64,000 nt of DNA from Limnohabitans sp. Rim8 (GTDB lineage: Bacteria > Pseudomonadota > Gammaproteobacteria > Burkholderiales > Burkholderiaceae_C), in the NCBI RefSeq assembly GCF_945901735.1, contig NZ_CAMDLM010000002.1:171396-235395 (forward strand), given 5' to 3'. This document shows positions 40,288 through 57,216 of the stretch, in pieces; positions within the stretch are counted from its first letter, which is position 1, and every line of letters begins with the position of its first letter. The notes under the pieces were generated by a model, which was not told the origin of the DNA, made no database searches, and worked only from the letters and a program-made list of their open reading frames with translations. The translations under genes and the position numbers were made by a program.

Positions 40288-40357
40288 GTAGGTCGGTGGC
40301 TTCAGCCCCGACAAAGTGGACCGCCAGCATTTGTCGGGGCTAAAGCCGCCGACCTAC
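40288..40357. repeat. Long hairpin repeat (28-bp arms)
   Basis: Arms at 40288-40315 and 40330-40357 are inverted copies of each other with only two differences, both of which leave G-T pairs in RNA. The loop is 14 bases. The arm begins GTAGGTCGGTGG and contains GCCCCGACAAA. The stop codon of the guanine deaminase gene lies inside the right arm. The first 12 bases recur at 63989-64000. It looks like a REP-like dispersed palindrome that also can act as an mRNA 3' hairpin. Confidence 0.8.
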
Positions 40358-41703
40358 CGATGGATATTCACGGGTTGCCCCTGCACCACCGTGTGCGCAA
40401 TCAGCCGTTCATCGCCCAGCACGATCATCGCAAACAGCCATTCGGCCAGCGTCTCGGTTTGTGCGGTGCGACGGGCCAGCAAGGGCGTGGCTTGGGGGTT
40501 GAGCACCACAAAGTCGGCTTCGCAGCCGGGCAGCAGGTTGCCCACTTGGCCGCTCAGGTCCAGTGCGCTGGCGGCCCCCGCCGTGTGCTGCCACCACAGG
40601 TGCTCGGGCAAGAGGCTGATGCCGGGGCGGCCCACGCCCTGCCTTTCCACACTTTGGCGGGCCACGGTGTAGGCCGCATGCATGGTGTGAAAGGGGCTGA
40701 AGCTGGTGCCGCCGCCCACGTCGCTGGCCAGACCGTAGCGCAGACCTGTCGCATCAGATGCCGCGTAGTCAAAAAAGCCGCTGCCCAGAAACAGGTTGCT
40801 GGTGGGGCTCACGGCGGCTGTCGCGCCCACCTCAGCCATGCGACGGCGGTCGGTCTCGTCCAGGTAGATGCAATGCGCGTAGACCGAGCGCTGGCGCAGC
40901 AGGCCTGCGCGGTCGTACACGTCCAGATAACTGCGCGCCTCGGGAAACAGTTCATGCACCCAGCGGATCTCGTCGAGGTTTTCGGCCACATGCGATTGGA
41001 CCCACACATCGGGGAACTGCTGTGCGATCTCGCCCGCGCCGTGCAACTGGGCCTGTGTGCTGGTGGGGGCAAAGCGGGGGGTGATGGCGTAGCCCAAGCG
41101 GTCCACGCCGTGCCAGCGGCGGATCAGTGCTTCGGTCTGGCGCAAGCTCATGTTCGTGTCGGTGTCGCGCAGGCCGTCGGGGCTGTGGCGGTCTTGCAGC
41201 ACCTTGCCGGTGACCATGCGCAGGTGACGCTTTTGCGCCTCGGCCATGAACACATCCACCGATTCGGGGTGGGCGGTGGCAAAGCACAGGGCGGTGGTCA
41301 CGCCGTGGCGCATCAGTTCGTCAATGAAAAATGCGGTCACTTCATGGGCGTAGGCGGGCTCTGAAAACTGCTTTTCGTGCGGAAAGGTGTAGTGCGTAAG
41401 CCAGGGCAGCAGGCCGTCGGCGGGCGAACCGATCACATCGGTTTGCGGGTAATGGATGTGCAGATCGACAAAGCCGGGCGCGATGCACAGGCCGGGCCAG
41501 TGGGTCACGGGCAGGTCGGGGTAGTGCGGTGCCAACTCGCTGTAGGGGCCGATGGCCTGGATGCGCACGATGCCGTCGGCTTCGCGGGCGGTGACCAGCA
41601 GGCCGTCGGTGTCGTGGCAGGCTTTCGGCTGGGCCGGGTCGGCGAACCAAAGTAAGCTGGCTCGCCAAGCTTGGCATTCGGTCAGTTGGGAGGTGCGGCG
41701 CAT
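40354..41703 (-). CDS. guaD: Guanine deaminase
   Basis: A 449-residue amidohydrolase. The metal-binding HxH lies in GFVDLHIHYPQTDVIGSPA, followed by the guanine deaminase segment LPWLTHYTFPHEKQF. Further ligands are in VQSHVAENLDEIRWV and ASDVGGGTSFS. It converts guanine to xanthine. ATG 41703 is chosen because the protein then begins like other members; an in-frame extension to 41838 is unlikely. Divergent from the nucleoside ABC importer, it supports a purine salvage or catabolism role for the region. Its C-terminal end lies within the hairpin repeat. Confidence 0.9.
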   Translation of the reverse strand: MRRTSQLTECQAWRASLLWFADPAQPKACHDTDGLLVTAREADGIVRIQAIGPYSELAPHYPDLPVTHWPGLCIAPGFVDLHIHYPQTDVIGSPADGLLPWLTHYTFPHEKQFSEPAYAHEVTAFFIDELMRHGVTTALCFATAHPESVDVFMAEAQKRHLRMVTGKVLQDRHSPDGLRDTDTNMSLRQTEALIRRWHGVDRLGYAITPRFAPTSTQAQLHGAGEIAQQFPDVWVQSHVAENLDEIRWVHELFPEARSYLDVYDRAGLLRQRSVYAHCIYLDETDRRRMAEVGATAAVSPTSNLFLGSGFFDYAASDATGLRYGLASDVGGGTSFSPFHTMHAAYTVARQSVERQGVGRPGISLLPEHLWWQHTAGAASALDLSGQVGNLLPGCEADFVVLNPQATPLLARRTAQTETLAEWLFAMIVLGDERLIAHTVVQGQPVNIHR

Positions 41704-41870
41704 AGGGCGGTCGTGGGGCAGTGTGGGGGTCAATACGGGGATAAACACCCGGAAAAAGGAGGTGTTCGTAGTGGTACATTGTCCGGCAATCTCATGGCTT
41801 GCAAGGGGGTGTCCACGGTTGAGGCACAGACTTCGCAAGACACTTATTCAGATCCTCCAACGCATCCGAC

Positions 41871-43421
41871 ATGACCCCCCCCCTTTTGTCTCTGCAAGGC
41901 ATCACCAAACGCTACCCCGGCGTGGTGGCCAACCAGGATGTGTCGCTCACCGTGATGCCGGGACAGGCCCATGCCGTGCTGGGTGAAAACGGCGCGGGCA
42001 AGTCCACGTTGATGAAAATCATCTATGGCTCGGTCAAGCCCGACGAGGGGCAGGTGTTTTTTAATGGCCAGCCGGTGCAAATCCGCAACCCGCAAGAAGC
42101 GCGCAAATTGGGCATCAGCATGGTGTTTCAGCACTTCAGCCTGTTTGACACGCTCACCGTGGCCGAGAACGTTTGGTTGGGGCTGGACAAAAACCTGAGT
42201 CTGGCCGAGGTGACCGAGCGCATCGTGGCCAAGGCCAGCGAGTACGGCCTGGACCTGCAGCCCGAGCGCCCGGTGCACACCTTGAGTGTGGGCGAGATGC
42301 AGCGGGTGGAGATCATCCGCGCCTTGTTGACCGAGCCCAAGCTCTTGATTTTGGACGAGCCGACCTCGGTGCTGACGCCGCAAGCGGTGGAGAAACTCTT
42401 TGTGGTGTTGCACAAGCTGGTCAGCCAGGGCGTCAGCATTTTGTACATCTCGCACAAGCTGCATGAAATTCGGGCGCTGTGCAGCGCTTGCACCGTGCTG
42501 CGCGGTGGCAAGCTGACAGGCGTGTGCGATCCGCGTGAAGAGTCCAACGCCAGCCTCAGCCGCTTGATGATCGGGGCCGAGCCCCCGGCTTTGCAGCATG
42601 TGGCGCGCGAGCCGGGTGCGGTGGTGTTGTCGGTCAAGTGCCTGAGTCTCTCGCGCCAAGACCCGTTTGGGGTGGACCTGGACGGCATTGATCTGCAGGT
42701 GCGTGCAGGCGAGGTGGTGGGCCTGGCGGGCGTGTCGGGCAATGGCCAAAAAGAATTGATGTGGGCCTTGTCGGGCGAAGACACTCGCGCAGGCGTGCAG
42801 TGCGGCGCGGCCAGTGTGAGCTTGTTGGGCCATCCGGTGGCGGCCCTGGGGCCGGTGCCGCGCAGGCAAATGGGCCTGCACTTTGTGCCCGAAGAGCGGC
42901 TGGGGCGGGGCGCTGTGCCCTCGCTCAGCCTGTCGCAAAACCTGCTGCTCACCCGCAGCGAAGCCGTGGGGGCGGGCGGCTGGGTGCGCACGGGCGCGCT
43001 GGCCGAACAGGCGCGCGGCGTCATCGAGCGCTTCAAGGTCAAGGCGTCGGGGCCTGACGCCGCAGCGCAGTCGCTCTCAGGCGGCAATTTGCAAAAGTTC
43101 ATTGTGGGGCGCGAGATCAGCGCGACCCCGAAGCTGCTCATCGTCTCGCAACCCACTTGGGGCGTCGACGTGGGCGCGGCGGCGCAAATTCGCGCCGAGA
43201 TTTTGGCGCTGCGCGACGCCGGTTGCGCGGTGCTGGTGGTGAGTGAGGAGTTGGAAGAATTGTTCGAGTTGTCGGACCGCATGCATGTGATCGCCAAGGG
43301 CCGTTTGTCGCCTTCTGTGGCGCGGGTCGAGGCCACGGTGGCACTTATTGGCGATTGGATGAGTGGCCTGTGGCCCGACGTTGCTGTTCAAGGCCAGGAG
43401 GCGCAGCATGCTCAAGCTTGA
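41871..43421 (+). CDS. BMP-type nucleoside ABC transporter, double ATP-binding protein
   Basis: A 516-residue protein with two ABC ATPase domains. The first has Walker A GENGAGKST near residue 40, signature LSVGEMQRVE and Walker B LLILDEPTSV. The second has a degenerate Walker A (GVSGNGQKEL), signature LSGGNLQKF and QPTWGVDVGAA. This is the YufO/RbsA-like layout used by BMP-dependent nucleoside importers. Codons 2-4 contain a run of nine C bases. It overlaps the first permease gene by 14 bases. Confidence 0.92.
   Translation: MTPPLLSLQGITKRYPGVVANQDVSLTVMPGQAHAVLGENGAGKSTLMKIIYGSVKPDEGQVFFNGQPVQIRNPQEARKLGISMVFQHFSLFDTLTVAENVWLGLDKNLSLAEVTERIVAKASEYGLDLQPERPVHTLSVGEMQRVEIIRALLTEPKLLILDEPTSVLTPQAVEKLFVVLHKLVSQGVSILYISHKLHEIRALCSACTVLRGGKLTGVCDPREESNASLSRLMIGAEPPALQHVAREPGAVVLSVKCLSLSRQDPFGVDLDGIDLQVRAGEVVGLAGVSGNGQKELMWALSGEDTRAGVQCGAASVSLLGHPVAALGPVPRRQMGLHFVPEERLGRGAVPSLSLSQNLLLTRSEAVGAGGWVRTGALAEQARGVIERFKVKASGPDAAAQSLSGGNLQKFIVGREISATPKLLIVSQPTWGVDVGAAAQIRAEILALRDAGCAVLVVSEELEELFELSDRMHVIAKGRLSPSVARVEATVALIGDWMSGLWPDVAVQGQEAQHAQA
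41875..41883 (+). repeat. C9 homopolymer at codons 2-4 of the ABC ATPase gene
   Basis: Nine consecutive C bases directly after ATGA of the start. A change by one base would shift the frame and remove the ATPase. It could be a slippage-prone switch or a site of sequencing error. Confidence 0.9.
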
Positions 43422-44496
43422 AATGCGGCCCCAGGCCTCGCGCCTGTGGACTTTTGCCTCGCCCGTGCTGGCGCTGGTGCTGACGGTGTTGCTGGGTGTG
43501 GCGCTGTTCATGGCGCTGGGCAAAGACCCGGTGCGCGGGCTGCAAATGTTCTTTTGGGAGCCCATCAAAAGTGGCTATGCCTTGGGCGAGCTGATGGTCA
43601 AGGCCACGCCTTTGCTCATCATCGCGCTGGGCTTGTCGGTGTGCTTCCGCTCCAACGTGTGGAACATCGGGGCCGAGGGGCAGTTTGTGATTGGCGCGGT
43701 GTGCGCCGGGGGCATGGCGCTGCTGGCGGACAAAGACACGGGCCGCTGGATCGTGCTGGCCGTATTGCTGGCGGGGGTGATGGGCGGCATGTTTTGGGCA
43801 GGCCTCACGGCGCTGCTGCGCGACCGTTTTAACGCCAACGAAATTTTGGTTAGCCTGATGCTGGTGTATGTGGCCGACATGGTCCTGAGCTATTTGGTTT
43901 ATGGCCCCTGGAAAGACCCGGCGGGTTTCAATTTCCCGCAGTCCAAAACCTTTGAGTCGGTCACGCAAATCCCGCGCTTGATGGACGGCTCGCGCGTCAG
44001 CGTGGGCTTGTTGCTGGCGCTGCTGGGGGCGGGCTTGTTGTGGGTGTTCTTGTTCCGCACCCGAGCCGGTTTTGCCCAGCAGGTGGGCGGGCTGGCCCCG
44101 GCGGCGGCGCGTTATGCGGGGTTTTCTTCGCGCCAGGCGCTGTGGGTGGCGCTGCTCACCTCGGGCGGTGCGGCAGGTTTGGCGGGCGCCTTGGAAGTCG
44201 CCGGGCCCATCGGGCAGCTCACGCCTTATGTGCCTGCGGGCTATGGCTTTGCCGCCATCATCGTGGCCTTTGTCGGGCGCTTGCACCCGGCGGGCATGGT
44301 GTTGTCGGCGGTGCTGATGAGCATGTTTTACATCGGAGGGGAACTTGCGCAATCGCGCCTGGGGCTGCCCAAGTCGATCACCGGCGTGTTCCAGGGTTTG
44401 CTGCTGTTTTGCTTGTTGGCGTGTGACACGCTGGTGGCCTACCGCTTGCGCTGGGTGGCTGCCCACAGTTCAGTGCCAAAGAGAGGAGGCATGTGA
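43408..44496 (+). CDS. BMP-type nucleoside ABC transporter permease 1
   Basis: A 362-residue polytopic protein of the YufP/RbsC-related kind. It shows TPLLIIALGLSVCFRSNVWNIGAEGQ, whose NIGAEGQ core is the permease signature, and YGFAAIIVAFVGRLHP near the C-terminus. AGGAG lies just before ATG 43408. The stop and the next start share one base. With permease 2 it forms the pore for nucleosides or nucleobases. Confidence 0.92.
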   Translation: MLKLEMRPQASRLWTFASPVLALVLTVLLGVALFMALGKDPVRGLQMFFWEPIKSGYALGELMVKATPLLIIALGLSVCFRSNVWNIGAEGQFVIGAVCAGGMALLADKDTGRWIVLAVLLAGVMGGMFWAGLTALLRDRFNANEILVSLMLVYVADMVLSYLVYGPWKDPAGFNFPQSKTFESVTQIPRLMDGSRVSVGLLLALLGAGLLWVFLFRTRAGFAQQVGGLAPAAARYAGFSSRQALWVALLTSGGAAGLAGALEVAGPIGQLTPYVPAGYGFAAIIVAFVGRLHPAGMVLSAVLMSMFYIGGELAQSRLGLPKSITGVFQGLLLFCLLACDTLVAYRLRWVAAHSSVPKRGGM

Positions 44497-45416
44497 TGGA
44501 ATCCTATGCATTGCTGATCGCAGCCACGCTGAATGCGGGTACGGTGCTGGCCATTGCCGCTTTGGGTTTGCTGATCAATGAAAAAGCCGGGGTGGTGAAC
44601 CTGGGCGCCGAGGGCATGATGCTGTGCGCGGCGATTGCCGGCTTTGCGGCCGTGGTGCACACCGGCAACGACTGGCTGGGCTTTGCTGCGGGCATGGGCG
44701 CGGGCGCGCTGCTGGCGGCCATTTTTGGGGTGCTGGTGATTTGGCTGAACACCAACCAGTACGCCACGGGCCTGGCGTTGAGTCTGTTTGGCGTGGGTTT
44801 TTCGGCCTTTGTCGGCATTGGCTATGTGAAAGAAAAACTGCCGGACCGGCCCCATTTTGCGGTGTCTTATCTGGCCGACATTCCGCTGGTGGGACCGGCT
44901 TTGTTCAAACAGCACCCGCTGGTGTACGGTGCCATGCTGCTGGTGTTGGCCCTGATTTGGTTCCTGTACCGCAGCCGCACCGGTTTGGTGCTGCGCGCCG
45001 TGGGCGAATCCCCGGCCTCGGCGCACGCCTTGGGTTACCCGGTGCGCCGCATTCGCCTGGCGGCGGTGGTGGCCGGGGGGGCCTTGTGTGGCCTCGCCGG
45101 GGCGTACATCTCGGTGATCTACACCCCGCTGTGGGTCGAAGGCATGGTGGCGGGCAAGGGCTGGATCGCGCTGGCCTTGACCACCTTTGCCACCTGGCGT
45201 CCGGCACGCGTATTGCTTGGGGCTTACTTGTTTGGTGGCGTGACCATGCTGCAGTTCCATTTACAGGGCGTGGGTGTGCAAGTGCCCAGCCAGTTGCTCA
45301 CGGCGCTGCCCTACATTGCCACCATCGTGGTGCTGGCCCTGATCTCGCGCAACCCGACCTGGATTCGCGTGAACATGCCAGCCTCGCTGGGCAAGCCCTT
45401 TTATCCCGGTTCATAA
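44496..45416 (+). CDS. BMP-type nucleoside ABC transporter permease 2
   Basis: A 306-residue polytopic protein of the YufQ type, with GLLINEKAGVVNLGAEGMML near the N-terminus and GKGWIALALTTFATWRP later. AGGAGG lies seven bases before ATG 44496; a GTG three bases earlier is also possible. The BMP lipoprotein gene follows after 46 bases. Confidence 0.92.
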   Translation: MESYALLIAATLNAGTVLAIAALGLLINEKAGVVNLGAEGMMLCAAIAGFAAVVHTGNDWLGFAAGMGAGALLAAIFGVLVIWLNTNQYATGLALSLFGVGFSAFVGIGYVKEKLPDRPHFAVSYLADIPLVGPALFKQHPLVYGAMLLVLALIWFLYRSRTGLVLRAVGESPASAHALGYPVRRIRLAAVVAGGALCGLAGAYISVIYTPLWVEGMVAGKGWIALALTTFATWRPARVLLGAYLFGGVTMLQFHLQGVGVQVPSQLLTALPYIATIVVLALISRNPTWIRVNMPASLGKPFYPGS

Positions 45417-45462: not shown

Positions 45463-46608
45463 ATGACAGACCTCTCCAAGCGCTCCATCGTCAAGATGGT
45501 GGCCCTGACCGCTGTGGCCGCCGCCGCGCTGGTCGGCTGTGGCAAAAAAGAAGAAGCTCCCAAAGCTGAAGCTCCGGCTGCTGCGCCCGCCAAGCCCGAG
45601 CCTTTGAAGATCGCGTTTGCGTACGTCGGCCCTGTGGGCGACGGCGGCTGGACCTTTGCGCACGACAACGGCCGCAAGGAAATCGAAAAAGCCTTCGGTG
45701 ACAAAGTGGTCACCAGCGTAGTTGAGAACGTTCTTGAAAATGCAGATGCGGAACGTGTGATTCGTGACATGACTGGGCAGGGCAACAAGCTGATTTTTGG
45801 CACAACTTTCGGCTACATGGAGCCTATGCTCAAAGTCGCTGCAGACAACAAGGGCGTCAAGTTTGAGCACGCCACCGGCTACAAAACCGCCGAGAACATG
45901 CGCACTTACGACAGCCGCACCTACGAAGGCGCGTACATGGCTGGCGTGATTGCGGGCAAGATGACTAAGAATAATATTTTGGGCTTTGTCGCCTCTAAAC
46001 CGATTCCTGAAGTGATTCGCAACATCAACAGCTTTACCATGGGCGCACAGTCGGTCAACCCCAAGATTAAAACCAAAGTGGTGTGGGTGAACGACTGGTT
46101 CAACCCACCGAAAGAAACCGAAGCCGCCACCTCGCTGATCAACGGCGGTGCCGACGTGCTGATGCAAAACACTGATTCTTCGGCTGTGCTGCAGACCGCC
46201 GAGAAAATGGGCAAGCGCGCCTTTGGCTGGGATTCCGACATGACCGCCTACGGCCCCAAGGCCCACCTGGGTTCGGCCGTGATCAACTGGGGACCTTACT
46301 ACGTCAAGGCCGTGGGTGAAGCCCTGGAAGGCAAGTGGAACGGTAATCAGGCTTCCTGGTGGGGCGTGAAAGAAGGTGCGATCGACATGGTCAACGTGGC
46401 CGCTGACGTGCCAGAAGACACCCAAAAGAAAATCGCCGAAATCAAAGCCGGTCTGAAAGACGGCACATTGTCGATCTGGAAGGGCCCGATCGTGGACCAA
46501 GCCGGTAAAGAAATGTTGGCCAAAGACGCTGTCGCTGACGACAAGTTCTTGGGTGGCGTTATGTTCTACGTCAAGGGCGTGGAAGGCAAGGTTCCTGGTG
46601 GTAAATGA
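45463..46608 (+). CDS. BMP-family nucleoside/purine-binding lipoprotein (copy 1)
   Basis: A 381-residue binding protein. The lipobox ALVGC puts the lipid-modified cysteine at 26, followed by a short Lys/Ala/Pro-rich tether (KKEEAPKAEAPAAAPAKPEP) and a BMP domain starting PLKIAFAYVGPVGDGGWTF. Motifs such as FGTTFGYMEPMLKVA and NTDSSAVLQTAEKMGKRAFG follow. It is the receptor of the preceding permease/ATPase set, and AAAGGAA before the ATG gives good translation. Its mature domain is duplicated in the next gene. Confidence 0.93.
   Translation: MTDLSKRSIVKMVALTAVAAAALVGCGKKEEAPKAEAPAAAPAKPEPLKIAFAYVGPVGDGGWTFAHDNGRKEIEKAFGDKVVTSVVENVLENADAERVIRDMTGQGNKLIFGTTFGYMEPMLKVAADNKGVKFEHATGYKTAENMRTYDSRTYEGAYMAGVIAGKMTKNNILGFVASKPIPEVIRNINSFTMGAQSVNPKIKTKVVWVNDWFNPPKETEAATSLINGGADVLMQNTDSSAVLQTAEKMGKRAFGWDSDMTAYGPKAHLGSAVINWGPYYVKAVGEALEGKWNGNQASWWGVKEGAIDMVNVAADVPEDTQKKIAEIKAGLKDGTLSIWKGPIVDQAGKEMLAKDAVADDKFLGGVMFYVKGVEGKVPGGK
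45601..46608 (+). repeat. Direct duplicate of BMP domain (partner 47826-48827)
   Basis: The segment 45601-46608 aligns base for base with 47826-48827 apart from two 3-base deletions in the second copy. My hand comparison of the proteins gives about 33 differences in about 334 residues. Differences cluster in two patches (about 45715-45790 and 45960-46050) while long stretches between are nearly identical. Confidence 0.92.
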
Positions 46609-46651
46609 GCCCTAAGGGCACAGCACTACTGGTGGCGTAAAGCCACTACTG

Positions 46652-46676
46652 AAGCTGCTCTTGGGCAGCTTTTTTA
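46652..46676 (+). terminator. Terminator after the nucleoside ABC operon
   Basis: AAGCTGC (46652-46658) and GCAGCTT (46665-46671) form a stem followed by a run of T bases. It ends the operon and separates copy 1 from the caspase-BMP fusion. Confidence 0.8.
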
Positions 46677-46766: not shown

Positions 46767-48827
46767 ATGTTCAGAGAATTGAAGAAGTTTTTAATTTTGC
46801 TCTTGGCTGGTGTGTGCCTTGCGCTGCCTGCACATGCCAAACGGCTTGCTTTGGTATTGGGTAACGATCAATACACCGCTGTGAGCAAACTTCAAAAAGC
46901 TGGAAATGATGCCTCTGCAATGGCGCGTGAGCTGAGGGCTGCGGGGTTCACTGTCCAGCTTCACAGAGATCTCAATTACCGCGGCATGGTCAAGGCCATT
47001 GAGGTATTCGCTGCCAACATCACCGGTGGTGACGAAGTCGTGGTCTTCTTTGCTGGGCACGGAGTTCAAATCAAAGCGGGCAGCTATTTGCTGCCCACAG
47101 ATATAGAGGCCACTAGCGAGAGCGAAGTAGAAAAGACGGCCTATGAACTTAATGCGCTTATAGACAAAATTAGCGAAGCCAAGCCAGCATTTAGCTTGGT
47201 CATGGTGGATGCATGCCGAAATAACCCATTGAAATCCAAAGGACGTAGCGTGGGTGCCACTAGGGGGTTGAGTGCAGTTGAGCCACCAAAGGGGCAGATG
47301 GTCGTGTTCTCAGCAAGCCGAGGGCAAGAGGCGCTTGATCGACTGAGTGAAAAAGATCCCAATCCAAACGGCGTTTTCACCCGAGAATTTATTAAACGCA
47401 TGAAAAAACCTGGCGTCCGGATTGAAGACTTGATGCGGGAAGTACAGGATGCAGTTGAAAAATTGGCTGATTCGATTAGCCATGAACAGCGACCCGCAAT
47501 CTACAACGAGTCCCGAGGTAACTTTTATTTTTTTGGACCGACGACGGTGCAAACATCGAATAGCACAGAGCCTTTAGTTTCGACTCAGACAAAAGATGAA
47601 AAGTTTTGGGAAGATGTCAAGGCGGCAGGCAACAAAGAAGCCTATGAAGCTTACCTGCTGAGCTATCCCACGGGGCGATACGCCCATTTGGCAAAAGCCA
47701 ACATTGCGCGACTTACAACCTCAAATTCAGCACCAGCACCAGCACCAGCACCAGCACCCGCACCCGCACCCGCACAATTACCGGTCAATAAACCAACTTC
47801 GACCAATAAATTAGTCGCGAAGCAACCTTTGAGGATCGCGTTTGCGTACGTCGGCCCCGTGGGCGACGGCGGCTGGACCTTTGCTCACGAAAACGGTCGC
47901 AAAGAAATCGAAAAAGCCTTCGGCGACAAGGTCGTCACCACCTTCGTTGAAAAAGTGCCAGAAAGCGCGGACGCCGAGCGCGTGATCCGCTACATGGCGG
48001 CCCAAGGCAACAAGCTGATTTTCGGCACCACCTTTGGCTACATGGAGCCCATGCTCAAAGTCGCTGCGGACAACAAGGGTGTCAAGTTTGAGCACGCCAC
48101 CGGCTACAAAACTGCCGAAAACATGCGTACCTACGACAGCCGCACCTACGAAGGCGCGTATTTGGCGGGCGTGATCGCGGGCAAGATGACCAAGACCAAC
48201 GTCTTGGGGGTGGTGGCTTCCATCCCAATCCCCGAGGTCATTCGCAACATCAACAGTTACACCATGGGCGCGCAGTCGGTCAACCCCAAGATCAAGACCA
48301 AAGTGGTCTGGGTCAATGAGTGGTTCAACCCACCGAAAGAAACAGAAGCCGCGACATTACTGATCAACGGCGGTGCGGACGTGCTGATGCAAAACACCGA
48401 CTCGTCGGCTGTGCTGCAGACCGCCGAAAAAATGGGCAAGCGCGCCTTCGGCTGGGATTCCGACATGACCGCTTACGGCCCCAAAGCCCACTTGGGCTCT
48501 GCTGTTAACAACTGGGGCCCTTACTACGTCAAGGCCGTGGGGGAAGCCCTGGAAGGCAAATGGACCACGGGTCAAAGCTGGTGGGGCGTGAAAGAAGGCG
48601 CGATCGACATGGTCAACGTGGCCGCAGACGTGCCAAAAGACACCAAAAAGCGCATCGACGAAATCAAAGCCGGTCTGAAAGACGGCAGCTTCTCGATCTG
48701 GAAGGGGCCGATCGTGGATCAGGCCGGTAAGGTAATGCTGGCCAAAGACACTGTCGCCGACGACAAGTTCTTGGGTGGTGTGATGTTCTACGTCAAGGGC
48801 GTGGAAGGCAAGATCCCAGGCAAGTGA
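46767..48827 (+). CDS. Secreted caspase-like (C14) - BMP solute-binding fusion protein
   Basis: A 686-residue protein. Residues 1-24 are a signal peptide (ending PAHA). Residues 25 to about 255 form a caspase-like domain starting KRLALVLGNDQY, with the catalytic pair His98 (FFAGHGVQ) and Cys150 (MVDACRNNP). Residues 278-316 hold a short helical repeat (KFWEDVKAAGNKEAYEAYLL) often found behind bacterial caspase domains. A (Pro-Ala) linker at about 322-336 leads to a complete BMP domain, 354-686, nearly identical to the preceding lipoprotein. The lipobox of that protein is absent. The caspase part uses noticeably more AT-rich codons than its neighbours, which suggests foreign origin. The start is ATG 46767; an in-frame GTG at 46758 is possible. 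Fusion is in one uninterrupted frame. The role is unknown; ligand-gated periplasmic proteolysis is a hypothesis. Confidence 0.9.
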   Translation: MFRELKKFLILLLAGVCLALPAHAKRLALVLGNDQYTAVSKLQKAGNDASAMARELRAAGFTVQLHRDLNYRGMVKAIEVFAANITGGDEVVVFFAGHGVQIKAGSYLLPTDIEATSESEVEKTAYELNALIDKISEAKPAFSLVMVDACRNNPLKSKGRSVGATRGLSAVEPPKGQMVVFSASRGQEALDRLSEKDPNPNGVFTREFIKRMKKPGVRIEDLMREVQDAVEKLADSISHEQRPAIYNESRGNFYFFGPTTVQTSNSTEPLVSTQTKDEKFWEDVKAAGNKEAYEAYLLSYPTGRYAHLAKANIARLTTSNSAPAPAPAPAPAPAPAQLPVNKPTSTNKLVAKQPLRIAFAYVGPVGDGGWTFAHENGRKEIEKAFGDKVVTTFVEKVPESADAERVIRYMAAQGNKLIFGTTFGYMEPMLKVAADNKGVKFEHATGYKTAENMRTYDSRTYEGAYLAGVIAGKMTKTNVLGVVASIPIPEVIRNINSYTMGAQSVNPKIKTKVVWVNEWFNPPKETEAATLLINGGADVLMQNTDSSAVLQTAEKMGKRAFGWDSDMTAYGPKAHLGSAVNNWGPYYVKAVGEALEGKWTTGQSWWGVKEGAIDMVNVAADVPKDTKKRIDEIKAGLKDGSFSIWKGPIVDQAGKVMLAKDTVADDKFLGGVMFYVKGVEGKIPGK
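47731..47772 (+). repeat. Hexanucleotide tandem repeat encoding the Pro-Ala linker
   Basis: Four copies of CACCAG followed by three of CACCCG, in frame, giving an alternating Ala-Pro linker between the caspase region and the BMP domain. Copy number changes would alter linker length without breaking the frame. Confidence 0.95.
47826..48827 (+). repeat. Direct duplicate of BMP domain (partner 45601-46608)
   Basis: Second copy of the BMP domain, forming the C-terminal half of the fusion protein. The similarity begins abruptly at CCTTTGA, shortly after the Pro-Ala linker, and continues to the stop codon. Confidence 0.92.
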
Positions 48828-48858
48828 CGGCTCGCGCCGCAAAGGCGCTGACCGCACG

Positions 48859-48892
48859 AAGCCGCCCGATGCAAGTCGGGCGGCTTTTTTTT
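48859..48892 (+). terminator. Strong terminator after the caspase-BMP gene
   Basis: AAGCCGCCCG (48859-48868) and CGGGCGGCTT (48877-48886) form a perfect 10-bp stem with an 8-base loop, followed by a run of T bases. Confidence 0.92.
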
Positions 48893-48933: not shown

Positions 48934-50160
48934 TTGTTCAAAAACCTGGAATCCTCCACAGCCTCGCGCAGAAGCGGGCGGCAAATCCTGTCTGACTTTG
49001 GCAGCACCTACGCCGCCAATGCCTTGATTGGTTTTATCTTTGCCGCCACTGGCCCGGTGGCCGTCATTTTGTCGGTGGGCACTGGCGGTGGCCTGTCGCC
49101 GGAGGAACTGGCGTCCTGGGTCTTCGGGGTGTTTTTTGTCAACGGCCTGGTCAGCATGCTGATGAGCTGGCGCTACACCACGCCGCTGGCGTTTGGCTGG
49201 ACGATTCCCGGCACGGTGCTGGTCGGGCCGGCCTTGCAACACCTGACTTTTCCAGAGGTGATCGGTGCCTTTTATGTCACCAGTGCTTTGGTGCTGGTGT
49301 TGGGCTTGAGTGGTTGGGTCAAGCGCTTGATGGCGGCTTTGCCCATGCCCATTGTCATGGGCATGGTGGCTGGGGTGTTCTTGCGCTTTGGCCTGGACAT
49401 CGTGCGGGCGCTGCAAAGCGATGTGGCCATTGCAGCCCCGATGGTGGCCGTGTTTTTGTTACTCTCGGTGCGTGCCGATTGGGGCAGGCGCCTGCCGCCT
49501 GTCATCGGCGCTTTGTTGGTGGGGGCTTTGGCGGTGGCGGTGTCGGGCAGGCTGGACGCCTCGGCCGTGGGGCAGCTGAGTTTGGCGCAGCCGGTCATTC
49601 AAGTGCCAGTCTGGTCGTTTGCCGCCATGCTGGAGTTGGTGGTGCCGCTGGCCATCACGGTGCTGGTGGTGCAAAACGGGCAGGGCGTGGCGGTGCTCAA
49701 AAACGCGGGGCACGAGCCACCCGTGAACATGATTGCCGTGGCCTGCGGTGTGGGCGCGGCGGTGAGCGCGGTGTTTGGTGCGGTCAGCACATGCCTGACG
49801 GGTCCGACCAACGGCTTGCTCACCTCGTCCGGCGAAAAGCATCGCCACTACATTGGTGCGTTGTTGTTTGGCGTGCTGGCCTTGCTGTTTGGTCTGATGG
49901 CGCCCACTTTCACCGGGCTCATGCTGGCCGCGCCCAAAGAATTCATCATGGTGTTGGGCGGTCTGGCCATGTTGCGGGTGCTGCAAGGCGCGTTTGTGGC
50001 TTCGTTTGGCGCAGGCAAATTCTCGCTGGGGGCACTGGTCAGCCTGTTGGTCACAGTGGCCGACATTGGGCTTTTCAATATTGGCGCGGCCTTCTGGGGT
50101 TTGGTGGTGGGGTTTGCGGTGTCGTGGTGGATGGAGCGGGGTGATTTTCAGAAAACGTGA
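48934..50160 (+). CDS. benE: BenE-family benzoate/H+ symporter-like permease
   Basis: A membrane protein of about 408 residues with roughly 12 hydrophobic segments. Segments such as TYAANALIGFIFAATGPVAV, FGWTIPGTVLVGPAL and NGQGVAVLKNAGHEPPVN match the BenE family, which imports benzoate or other small aromatic acids by proton symport. The reading frame opens with TTG at 48934; the next ATG would remove the first membrane segments, so TTG is kept, though no strong ribosome site is seen. No benzoate catabolic gene is nearby except a carboxymuconolactone decarboxylase-like gene, so the substrate is uncertain. Confidence 0.85.
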   Translation: MFKNLESSTASRRSGRQILSDFGSTYAANALIGFIFAATGPVAVILSVGTGGGLSPEELASWVFGVFFVNGLVSMLMSWRYTTPLAFGWTIPGTVLVGPALQHLTFPEVIGAFYVTSALVLVLGLSGWVKRLMAALPMPIVMGMVAGVFLRFGLDIVRALQSDVAIAAPMVAVFLLLSVRADWGRRLPPVIGALLVGALAVAVSGRLDASAVGQLSLAQPVIQVPVWSFAAMLELVVPLAITVLVVQNGQGVAVLKNAGHEPPVNMIAVACGVGAAVSAVFGAVSTCLTGPTNGLLTSSGEKHRHYIGALLFGVLALLFGLMAPTFTGLMLAAPKEFIMVLGGLAMLRVLQGAFVASFGAGKFSLGALVSLLVTVADIGLFNIGAAFWGLVVGFAVSWWMERGDFQKT

Positions 50161-54748: not shown

Positions 54749-56037
<1,289 letters not shown>

Positions 56038-56070
56038 GTGACCCAGGGCACTTGCTAAAATCCCACCCCG

Positions 56071-56099
56071 AAGCCCGCCGCCCCTGCGGGCTTTGTTTT
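56071..56099 (+). terminator. Terminator after adenine deaminase
   Basis: AAGCCCGC (56071-56078) and GCGGGCTT (56086-56093) form a stem followed by TGTTTTG, between the deaminase and the third BMP gene. Confidence 0.75.
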
Positions 56100-56130
56100 G
56101 TTCAATCTCGGGGCCATGTAGAGGACTACC

Positions 56131-57216
56131 ATGTATAAAAACCTCGCTGCCACGCTCGTGGCCGCCTGCTTTTTTCTTCCCGCTGTTCGGGCACAAACCA
56201 CTCCCAAATCCACCGAGCCCATCAAGGCCGGTTTTGTTTATGTCTCGCCCATCACCGAAGCGGGCTGGACCCGGCAGCATGACGAGGGCCGCAAGGCGGT
56301 CGAGCGGGCTTTGGGCCAACAGGTCAAGACCACCTTTGTGGCCGATGTGGCCGAGGGCGCTGATGCCGAGCGCGTGATCCGCGACTTGGCTCAGCAGGGC
56401 CACCAAATCATTTTCACCCCCAGCTTTGGCTACATGGAGCCCACGCTCAAGGTAGCCAAAGAATTTCCAAATGTGAAATTTGAATCGGTCACCGGCTTCA
56501 AGACCGCGCCCAACGTGGCCGCGTCGAACGCCCGTTATTACGAAGGCCGCTATCTGGCGGGCATCGCCGCCGGGCGCATGACCCAATCGAATGTGGCCGG
56601 TTATGTGGCGGGTTTCCCGATCCCCGAGGTGCTGCAAGGCATCAACGCCTTCACCTTGGGCATGCGCTCGGTCAACCCCCAAGCCACCGTCAAGGTGGTC
56701 TGGCTCAACGCTTGGTTTGACCCACCCAAAGAGCGCGAAGCGGCCATGGCGCTGTTCAATCAAGACGTGGATGTGATCGCGTTCCACACGGGGTCCACCG
56801 CGGTGATGGCCGCAGCGCAAGAGCGCGGCAAGATGGCCATCGCCTACCACTCCGACATGCGCAAGATCGGGCCGGATGCGCAAATCATTGCCGTGACCCA
56901 CCAGTGGGGCGACTACTACACCGCCCGTGTCAAGGCGGCTTTGGCCGGCAGTTGGAAAAGCGGCAGTGTGTGGGGCGGCGTGAAGGACGGCATGGTCCGC
57001 GTCGGCGACTTTGGCCCCAAGGTGCCCAAGGGCGTGCAAGACGAGATTGGGGCCAAGCAAAAAGCCGTGGGCACAGGCAAGCTGCTGCCGTTTGCCGGCC
57101 CGATCACCGACAACGAGGGTAAGTTGGTGCTGCCCGCAGGCCAAACCCTGAGCGACACCCAGATCCTGAACATGAACTACCTGGTGCAAGGCGTGCAGGG
57201 GCGTGTGTCGCGCTGA
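56131..57216 (+). CDS. BMP-family nucleoside/purine-binding protein (third copy)
   Basis: A 361-residue BMP protein. It has a signal peptide (MYKNLAATLVAACFFLPAVRA) without a lipobox, so it is a soluble periplasmic protein. The mature part begins IKAGFVYVSPITEAGWTRQH and keeps the BMP motifs (FTPSFGYMEPTLKVA, GFPIPEVLQGIN). It is much more diverged from copies 1 and 2 than they are from each other. No permease genes accompany it, so it may share the nucleoside importer encoded at 41.9-45.4 kb. A strong bidirectional terminator follows. Confidence 0.9.
   Translation: MYKNLAATLVAACFFLPAVRAQTTPKSTEPIKAGFVYVSPITEAGWTRQHDEGRKAVERALGQQVKTTFVADVAEGADAERVIRDLAQQGHQIIFTPSFGYMEPTLKVAKEFPNVKFESVTGFKTAPNVAASNARYYEGRYLAGIAAGRMTQSNVAGYVAGFPIPEVLQGINAFTLGMRSVNPQATVKVVWLNAWFDPPKEREAAMALFNQDVDVIAFHTGSTAVMAAAQERGKMAIAYHSDMRKIGPDAQIIAVTHQWGDYYTARVKAALAGSWKSGSVWGGVKDGMVRVGDFGPKVPKGVQDEIGAKQKAVGTGKLLPFAGPITDNEGKLVLPAGQTLSDTQILNMNYLVQGVQGRVSR

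What the first reader, a model, noticed from the sequence alone, without database searches (positions are those of the whole stretch)
46767..48827. Secreted caspase-like protease domain fused to a BMP nucleoside-binding domain
One uninterrupted frame encodes a signal peptide, a caspase-like domain with an apparently intact His98/Cys150 pair, a short helical repeat, a Pro-Ala linker and a full BMP solute-binding domain. BMP proteins normally serve ABC importers or act as lipoproteins; I know of no described protein that joins them to a C14 peptidase. The gene lies directly after the importer operon whose receptor it copied. A plausible reading is a periplasmic sensor in which purine or nucleoside binding controls proteolysis, or a decoy/competitor for the importer.
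Basis: partly seen in the sequence, partly recalled or inferred. Interest (0 to 1): 0.93.

Follow-up and report, generated by a model that had tools for sequence, protein, structure and literature searches.

The report
Secreted caspase fused to purine receptor
A bacterium carries one gene that joins a caspase-type protease domain to a domain resembling purine-importer receptors, a pairing also found in 17 other database proteins with several different caspases, and it is likely an exported protease whose cutting would be controlled by purine binding.

The parts
46767..48827 (+). caspase-BMP fusion gene, 686 aa
   Evidence: one open frame; PF00656 + PF02608
46767..46838 (+). signal peptide, residues 1-24 (MFRELKK...ALPAHA), type I by its shape
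   Evidence: sequence by eye; N-terminal helix 2-17 in the model; no signal-peptide predictor was run
46839..47540 (+). caspase (p20+p10) domain, residues 25-258
47058..47060 (+). catalytic His98
   Evidence: FFAGHG; invariant in 20 rows; motif in 18 of 18 fusions
47214..47216 (+). catalytic Cys150
   Evidence: VDACR; invariant in 20 rows; motif in 18 of 18 fusions
47583..47720 (+). helical hairpin connector, residues 273-318
   Evidence: helices 273-287, 290-299, 306-318; similar connector in other caspase subfamilies
47727..47816 (+). disordered Pro-Ala linker, residues 321-350
   Evidence: pLDDT under 50; repeat length differs from P0002
47829..48824 (+). BMP/AtzT-type solute-binding domain, residues 355-686; positions of AtzT's ligand contacts: W370 T422 F423 E490 W519 N543 D545
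45463..46608 (+). standalone importer receptor (BMP) with lipobox-like LVGC
   Evidence: 90% identical to the fused domain; lipobox by eye
46651..46672 (+). hairpin followed by a U-run after the BMP gene, possible terminator between importer operon and fusion gene
   Evidence: fold -12.1 kcal/mol but z only -1.21; not found by the pattern scan
48858..48887 (+). terminator-like hairpin after the fusion gene
41871..45416 (+). ABC importer genes: ATPase (41871-43421) and two permeases (43363-44496, start unsure; 44493-45416)
   Evidence: PF00005, PF02653
40354..41838 (-). guanine deaminase, divergent
   Evidence: TIGR02967 above cut-off
48934..50160 (+). BenE-family transporter that follows the fusion
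   Evidence: PF03594

Best explanation
The gene encodes one 686-residue protein with a caspase domain and a domain of the purine-receptor (BMP, AtzT-like) family, and it likely works as a periplasmic receptor-protease in which binding of a purine by the BMP domain would switch the caspase's activity. Shown by sequence or model: one frame, intact His/Cys dyad, conserved receptor pocket, flexible linker, the same pair in 17 other proteins, repeated assembly. Inferred: export by the Sec route, proteolytic activity, a purine ligand, and the coupling between the domains. The coupling I favour is induced proximity: closing or self-association of the liganded BMP domain would bring two caspase domains together, as dimerisation activates MALT1 (recalled, not tested). 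Its natural role would be to answer a rise or fall of purines, for instance from lysed neighbours, by cutting envelope proteins.
For: Intact single frame and both domains. Confident model with MALT1- and AtzT-like folds and a flexible linker. A second fused protein, P0002, 96% identical over residues 1-350. 17 caspase-BMP proteins besides the window's among the 87 listed, with the dyad motifs in 18 of 18. Of seven AtzT ligand contacts, 5 are invariant across the 18, one is T (12) or S (6), one is N in 17 of 18; mean column entropy 0.175 against 0.864 for 332 columns, 80 of 20000 random draws as low. Fused BMP under purifying selection (dN/dS 0.04-0.08 against 11 genus orthologs). Repeated assembly: one BMP clade rejected, AU p 1.08e-5; caspase domains 26-47% identical between subfamilies; BMP before the caspase in P0167 and P0168. 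The same BMP domain joined to protein kinases: P0141 and P0142 (precomputed Pfam). Other caspases carry TctC receptors: P0036, P0207, and L048 by eye. Caspase and kinase outputs paired with ligand-binding C-lectin domains are in print (passages of PMC7517822).
Against: pTM is 0.53 and the linker is disordered, so the model does not fix how the domains lie to each other. The pocket is equally conserved in the standalone importer receptors compared, so conservation does not separate sensing from docking. Three of seven contacts differ from AtzT (Y45 to W, S97 to T, N220 to D), so the ligand may not be guanine. The fusion is rare: a match over both parts only in the window's genome among 90 of its genus, 399 of its family and 274 of its class, sets that overlap; no plasmid record of 590 with a match covers 80% of the protein. 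Substrate, partner and promoter are unknown (one search found no promoter-like site). No experiment was seen on any caspase-BMP protein.
Confidence: 0.5

Rival explanations
1. The BMP domain is a docking module: it likely holds the caspase at the purine importer's permease, where it would cut importer or neighbouring envelope proteins or compete with the lipoprotein receptor.
For: The fused domain is 90% identical to the importer receptor beside it and 94-95% to 11 BMP genes of the genus, and the gene lies beside importer genes.
Against: The fused protein has no lipobox, unlike the standalone receptor (by eye). The same BMP domain is also joined to kinases and to FGE domains, which docking on this importer would not explain. 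Whether the other fusions lie near importers was not seen.
Confidence: 0.17
2. The BMP domain is an integrated decoy: a copy of a surface receptor that phages, bacteriocins or predators might use, fused to a suicide caspase that would fire when the copy is bound.
For: The domain is a near-native copy of a host receptor. Receptors were captured repeatedly, TctC receptors too. The caspase matches the PADLOC caspase model at E 1.9e-13. A nucleoside-binding surface lipoprotein of an ABC transporter is the recipient factor for ICE uptake in mycoplasmas (abstract of PMC12892991).
Against: The ligand contacts are kept in nearly every fusion, which a decoy would not need. Pfam and NCBIfam name the neighbours tested as purine, transport and metabolic genes; PADLOC was run on the fusion alone. 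An envelope caspase would act outside the cytoplasm, unlike the suicide effectors that I recall.
Confidence: 0.1
3. The two halves have no functional coupling: a secreted caspase gene landed in front of a second BMP copy and read-through left a tolerated chimera.
For: Composition breaks at the linker: GC3 0.50 in the caspase, 0.77 in the BMP part. The fusion is rare. BMP genes are also found joined to a permease from the same kind of operon (P0138), as read-through would give.
Against: The same pair was assembled several times with different caspases and in both orders. Both dyad motifs are kept in 18 of 18. The fusion persists in a second sequence (P0002), with purifying selection on the window's BMP part.
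Confidence: 0.2

Closest known systems
AtzT, guanine/2-hydroxyatrazine periplasmic binding protein (6pi5, 6pi6, 6pii; PMC6834077)
   Different: AtzT is a single-domain importer receptor; contacts Y45, S97 and N220 are W, T and D here
Prokaryotic metacaspases/orthocaspases with accessory domains (PMC3501461)
   Same: C14 domain with dyad and accessory domain; FGE, Sel1 and, once, an ANF_receptor ligand-binding domain are reported partners (passages and one section)
   Different: The terms bmp, substrate-binding, periplasmic binding and ABC transporter do not occur in that paper's main text
DGR variable proteins of cyanobacteria: caspase or kinase + C-lectin domain (PMC7517822)
   Same: A ligand-binding module shared between caspase and kinase outputs (passages)
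   Different: C-lectin instead of BMP; no diversity-generating element was looked for here
MALT1 paracaspase
   Different: Eukaryotic, with other partner domains; Pfam finds no Ig or death domain here
BMP-fold activator of comK from Bacillus halodurans (2hqb)
   Same: A BMP-fold protein named for a regulatory role
   Different: Only 22% identity; no caspase in the solved chain's name
P48 nucleoside-binding lipoprotein of mycoplasmas (PMC12892991)
   Same: Nucleoside binding, not transport, is what matters for its second role (abstract)
   Different: Not compared by sequence here

Membership tests
Peptidase C14 (PF00656), prokaryotic caspase homologs | Profile match above the curated cut-off | tested here: met
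   103.3 bits against 21.4
Peptidase C14 (PF00656), prokaryotic caspase homologs | Catalytic His-Cys dyad | tested here: met
   H98, C150
Peptidase C14 (PF00656), prokaryotic caspase homologs | p20/p10 caspase fold | tested here: met
Peptidase C14 (PF00656), prokaryotic caspase homologs | Cleavage after Arg/Lys | not testable with these tools
   needs an enzyme assay
EACC1-associated caspase (NF047832) | Score above NCBIfam cut-off | tested here: not met
   54.2 bits against 140
BMP / PnrA-like solute-binding domain (PF02608) | Profile match and two-lobed fold | tested here: met
BMP / PnrA-like solute-binding domain (PF02608) | Ligand pocket intact | tested here: met
   same residues at nine pocket positions as the standalone receptor and 11 orthologs; binding itself untested
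ABC importer receptor lipoprotein | Lipobox cysteine | tested here: not met
   no lipobox in the fusion by eye; LVGC in the standalone gene
AtzT guanine receptor | All seven ligand contacts identical | tested here: not met
   4 of 7 identical; Y45W, S97T, N220D
DGR variable protein | C-lectin variable domain and reverse transcriptase | not tested
   only this protein's Pfam domains were scanned
Anti-phage caspase systems (PADLOC caspase) | Model match and system neighbours | tested here: inconclusive
   model E 1.9e-13, no cut-off given; neighbours were scanned with Pfam and NCBIfam only

The most novel reading that the evidence does not exclude
Solute-gated receptor-proteases: bacteria have repeatedly turned nutrient-importer receptors (BMP, also TctC) into sensors that gate secreted caspases, a protease counterpart of receptor kinases that use the same BMP domain.
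Probability: 0.4. Interest if true: 0.87.

Novelty: new variant of a known kind. Interest (0 to 1): 0.74.

Why it matters
What switches bacterial caspases on is largely open (recalled). Here the presumed input domain has a known fold, a mapped pocket and a short list of candidate ligands, so activation can be tested with purified protein and a handful of purines. The repeated assembly with different caspases argues for a selected function. If confirmed, it adds protease output to the ways in which bacteria read periplasmic solute receptors.

Tried and rejected
Assembly artefact or frame break: rejected, since the junction recurs in P0002 with a different Pro-Ala repeat length. Recent tandem copy of the neighbour: rejected by synonymous divergence. 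One ancestral caspase-BMP fusion: rejected by AU test. The counts are softer: 10 label changes on the best tree when standalone rows are counted, and only 3 forced by starred branches in the count that leaves them out; several fused rows have long branches.

General capture of neighbouring genes by these caspases: not supported. Of 109 loci given (L016-L124, some of them the same place twice), 61 by my count have 60 or more residues after the caspase match; only the window's own fusion has there a part homologous to a non-caspase gene in the locus. L016-L045 hold only about 1.5 kb on each side, and partners N-terminal of the caspase were not tested. L048, with a TctC part, had no such neighbour.

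Source of the diverged patches in the standalone BMP gene: the best match to the first patch in 90 genus genomes (own copy aside) is 80%; unexplained. Plasmid carriage: no plasmid record covers 80% of the protein. The order-wide search with P0160 found no row over both parts, but it also failed to join the two parts of the window's own fusion, so it is no test of rarity.

Papers: searches with caspase and BMP, substrate- or solute-binding, periplasm or integrated-decoy terms, a general one on prokaryotic caspases (20 of 71 papers listed) and one on BMP sensors. I saw titles and abstract starts in those listings, and none describes this pair; one search listed 12 of 17 papers, and the library lacks most subscription papers. 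Seen further: passages of PMC6834077 and PMC7517822, passages and one section of PMC3501461, abstract and outline of PMC12892991 and PMC4933709 (the last not used). The fold tables were not used to exclude any family.

Full report

Surroundings. On the left lie a divergent guanine deaminase (40354-41838), an ABC ATPase, two permeases and a BMP gene with a lipobox-like start (45463-46608). On the right lie a BenE-family transporter and malonyl-CoA decarboxylase and, further on, adenosine deaminase and a third BMP gene (56131-57216). I read this as a purine-salvage neighbourhood. A hairpin with a U-run follows the standalone BMP gene, but its fold is not unusual (z -1.21) and the pattern scan does not list it; whether the fusion gene has its own promoter is open. 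A terminator-like site follows the fusion gene. Titled loci point to Limnohabitans as the genus: L055 (Limnohabitans sp. Rim8 by title) has the contig number and caspase match of the genus-mate hit G072:C117.

It is a chimera. GC at third codon positions is 0.50 in the caspase plus hairpin, 0.77 in the fused BMP and 0.70-0.81 in the four neighbouring genes measured. In the genus, caspases near this one (66-76% identity) appear among the listed rows in 3 of the other 89 genomes (G045, G072, G076, whose row list is cut at its weak end), so the caspase looks like an accessory gene. The BMP part is 94-95% identical to 11 genus orthologs and 90% to the standalone copy beside it. Synonymous divergence from that copy is 0.62, or 0.44 outside three diverged patches of the standalone copy. 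The median between the orthologs is 0.36, and the closest of the 11 to the fused domain is L005 at 0.29. So it belongs to the genus lineage (100/97 support) but is not a recent copy of its neighbour. dN/dS of the fused BMP against the 11 orthologs is 0.04-0.08, where the median between orthologs is 0.045: the domain is still under strong constraint.

It is not alone. A search with residues 1-350 found P0002, a 684-residue metagenome protein with both domains and 96% identity over that region. It differs in Pro-Ala repeat length and in the first part of its BMP domain, so it is a separate sequence. A search with the BMP part of P0088, which admits only proteins of 587-1869 residues, returned 87 proteins, of which 17 carry both PF00656 and PF02608 (P0002 and P0088 among them; each stands for a cluster at 90% identity). 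With the window's protein that makes 18. All 18 show the GHG and DACR motifs of the dyad. P0172 looks truncated at its N-terminus, and P0150 and P0167 show no clear signal peptide as given (by eye).

Repeated assembly. The caspase domains fall into several subfamilies, 26-47% identical to one another and 70-98% within. On a tree of 80 BMP sequences the fused domains are scattered among standalone ones. Forcing the 18 into one clade costs 258 log-likelihood units (AU p 1.08e-5), and the best tree needs 10 label changes. Caveat: several of those rows have long branches, and the starred branches alone force only 3 changes in the narrower count. P0167 and P0168 carry the BMP before the caspase. 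The window genome's second caspase (L004, about 5 kb left of the window) has MORN-like repeats, coiled coil and caspase (by eye and by similarity to P0168). It is 74% identical to P0167 over 281 residues of coiled coil and caspase, where P0167 has a BMP domain in place of the repeats. Connectors are shared across caspase subfamilies: the window's hairpin is 29/45 identical in P0144, whose caspase is 33% identical; of the 18 fusions, 6 (P0154, P0155, P0160, P0168, P0170, P0172) and also P0156 and P0167 show no such hairpin. A second connector is shared by P0156, P0170 and P0172 (46-58%).

The receptor pocket. AtzT binds guanine through Ser97, Phe98 (backbone), Glu165, Asn218 and Asn220, with the ring between Tyr45 and Trp194 (passages of PMC6834077). 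In that order the window's fused domain has T422, F423, E490, N543, D545, W370 and W519. This is the same set as in its standalone neighbour and all 11 orthologs, 4 of 7 identical to AtzT. Across the 18 fusions five contacts are invariant, one is T (12) or S (6), and one is N (17) or S (1). Mean entropy is 0.175 against 0.864 over 332 columns; 80 of 20000 random draws are as low. The exact ligand is not known; a purine is inferred from AtzT and from the neighbouring guanine and adenosine deaminases.

Parallels. The same BMP domain is attached to protein kinase domains in P0141 and P0142 (precomputed Pfam), with a hydrophobic stretch between the two in P0141 (by eye). It is also attached to FGE domains (P0123, P0124; precomputed Pfam). 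Of the 120 closest relatives of the caspase part listed, 83 by my count carry FGE or Sel1 domains. In three cases a secreted caspase carries a TctC receptor domain: P0036 and P0207 by Pfam, L048 by eye. Caspase and kinase domains paired with ligand-binding C-lectin domains are described in cyanobacteria (passages of PMC7517822), and one ANF_receptor-metacaspase is reported (passage of PMC3501461). This pattern, an input domain swapped against a constant output, is the main ground for reading BMP as a sensor.

How it likely works. Inferred chain: export to the periplasm, purine binding between the BMP lobes, a change in self-association or exposure, caspase activation, cleavage of envelope proteins. 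Only the anatomy and conservation are shown. Rivals are docking on the importer, an integrated decoy, and an uncoupled chimera. Pocket conservation speaks against a pure decoy but does not separate sensing from docking; recurrence speaks against an uncoupled chimera.

Rarity. A match over both parts was listed only in the window's genome: 1 of 90 in the genus, 1 of 399 in the family and 1 of 274 in the class. These sets overlap, and searches scored at most two and four candidates per genome, so they could miss fusions with other caspases. The order-wide search (399 genomes, query P0160) listed no match over both parts, but not even for the window's own fusion, so it says little. None of 590 plasmid records with a match covers 80% of the protein.

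Novelty. Searches for caspase with BMP, solute-binding or periplasm terms listed no description of the pair. The parts are known families and modular caspases are known; the recurrent caspase-importer-receptor architecture appears undescribed as far as those searches reach. I score it a new variant of a known kind.

Noticed in passing
window 45463-46608: The standalone BMP gene carries two clear short patches (BMP codon-alignment bases 90-180 and 360-450: 72-80% identical to the 11 orthologs) and a weaker one (720-810: 80-83%), against 81-98% elsewhere; no genus genome matches the first patch above 80%.
   Followed up: partly
P0002 (metagenome fusion): The first third of its BMP domain differs from the window's fusion as if exchanged with another BMP, while the rest shares the fusion-specific residues.
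   Followed up: partly
G000:C2:166006-166623 (L004), about 5 kb left of the window: A second caspase with MORN-like repeats and coiled coil, the architecture in which P0167 has BMP in place of the repeats.
   Followed up: yes
P0141, P0142: Protein kinase joined to the same BMP domain, with a hydrophobic stretch between them in P0141: candidate purine receptor kinases.
   Followed up: partly
P0036, P0207, L048:7965-10373: Secreted caspases joined to a TctC tricarboxylate receptor domain (L048 by eye).
   Followed up: partly
L053:166-1692: Caspase of the same subfamily with a C-terminal part that looks rhodanese-like by eye.
   Followed up: no
window 54982-57216: Adenosine deaminase followed by a third BMP gene, 46% identical to the fused domain.
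   Followed up: no
P0166: A BMP domain in a record named as a pangolin retinol-binding protein, probably bacterial contamination.
   Followed up: no
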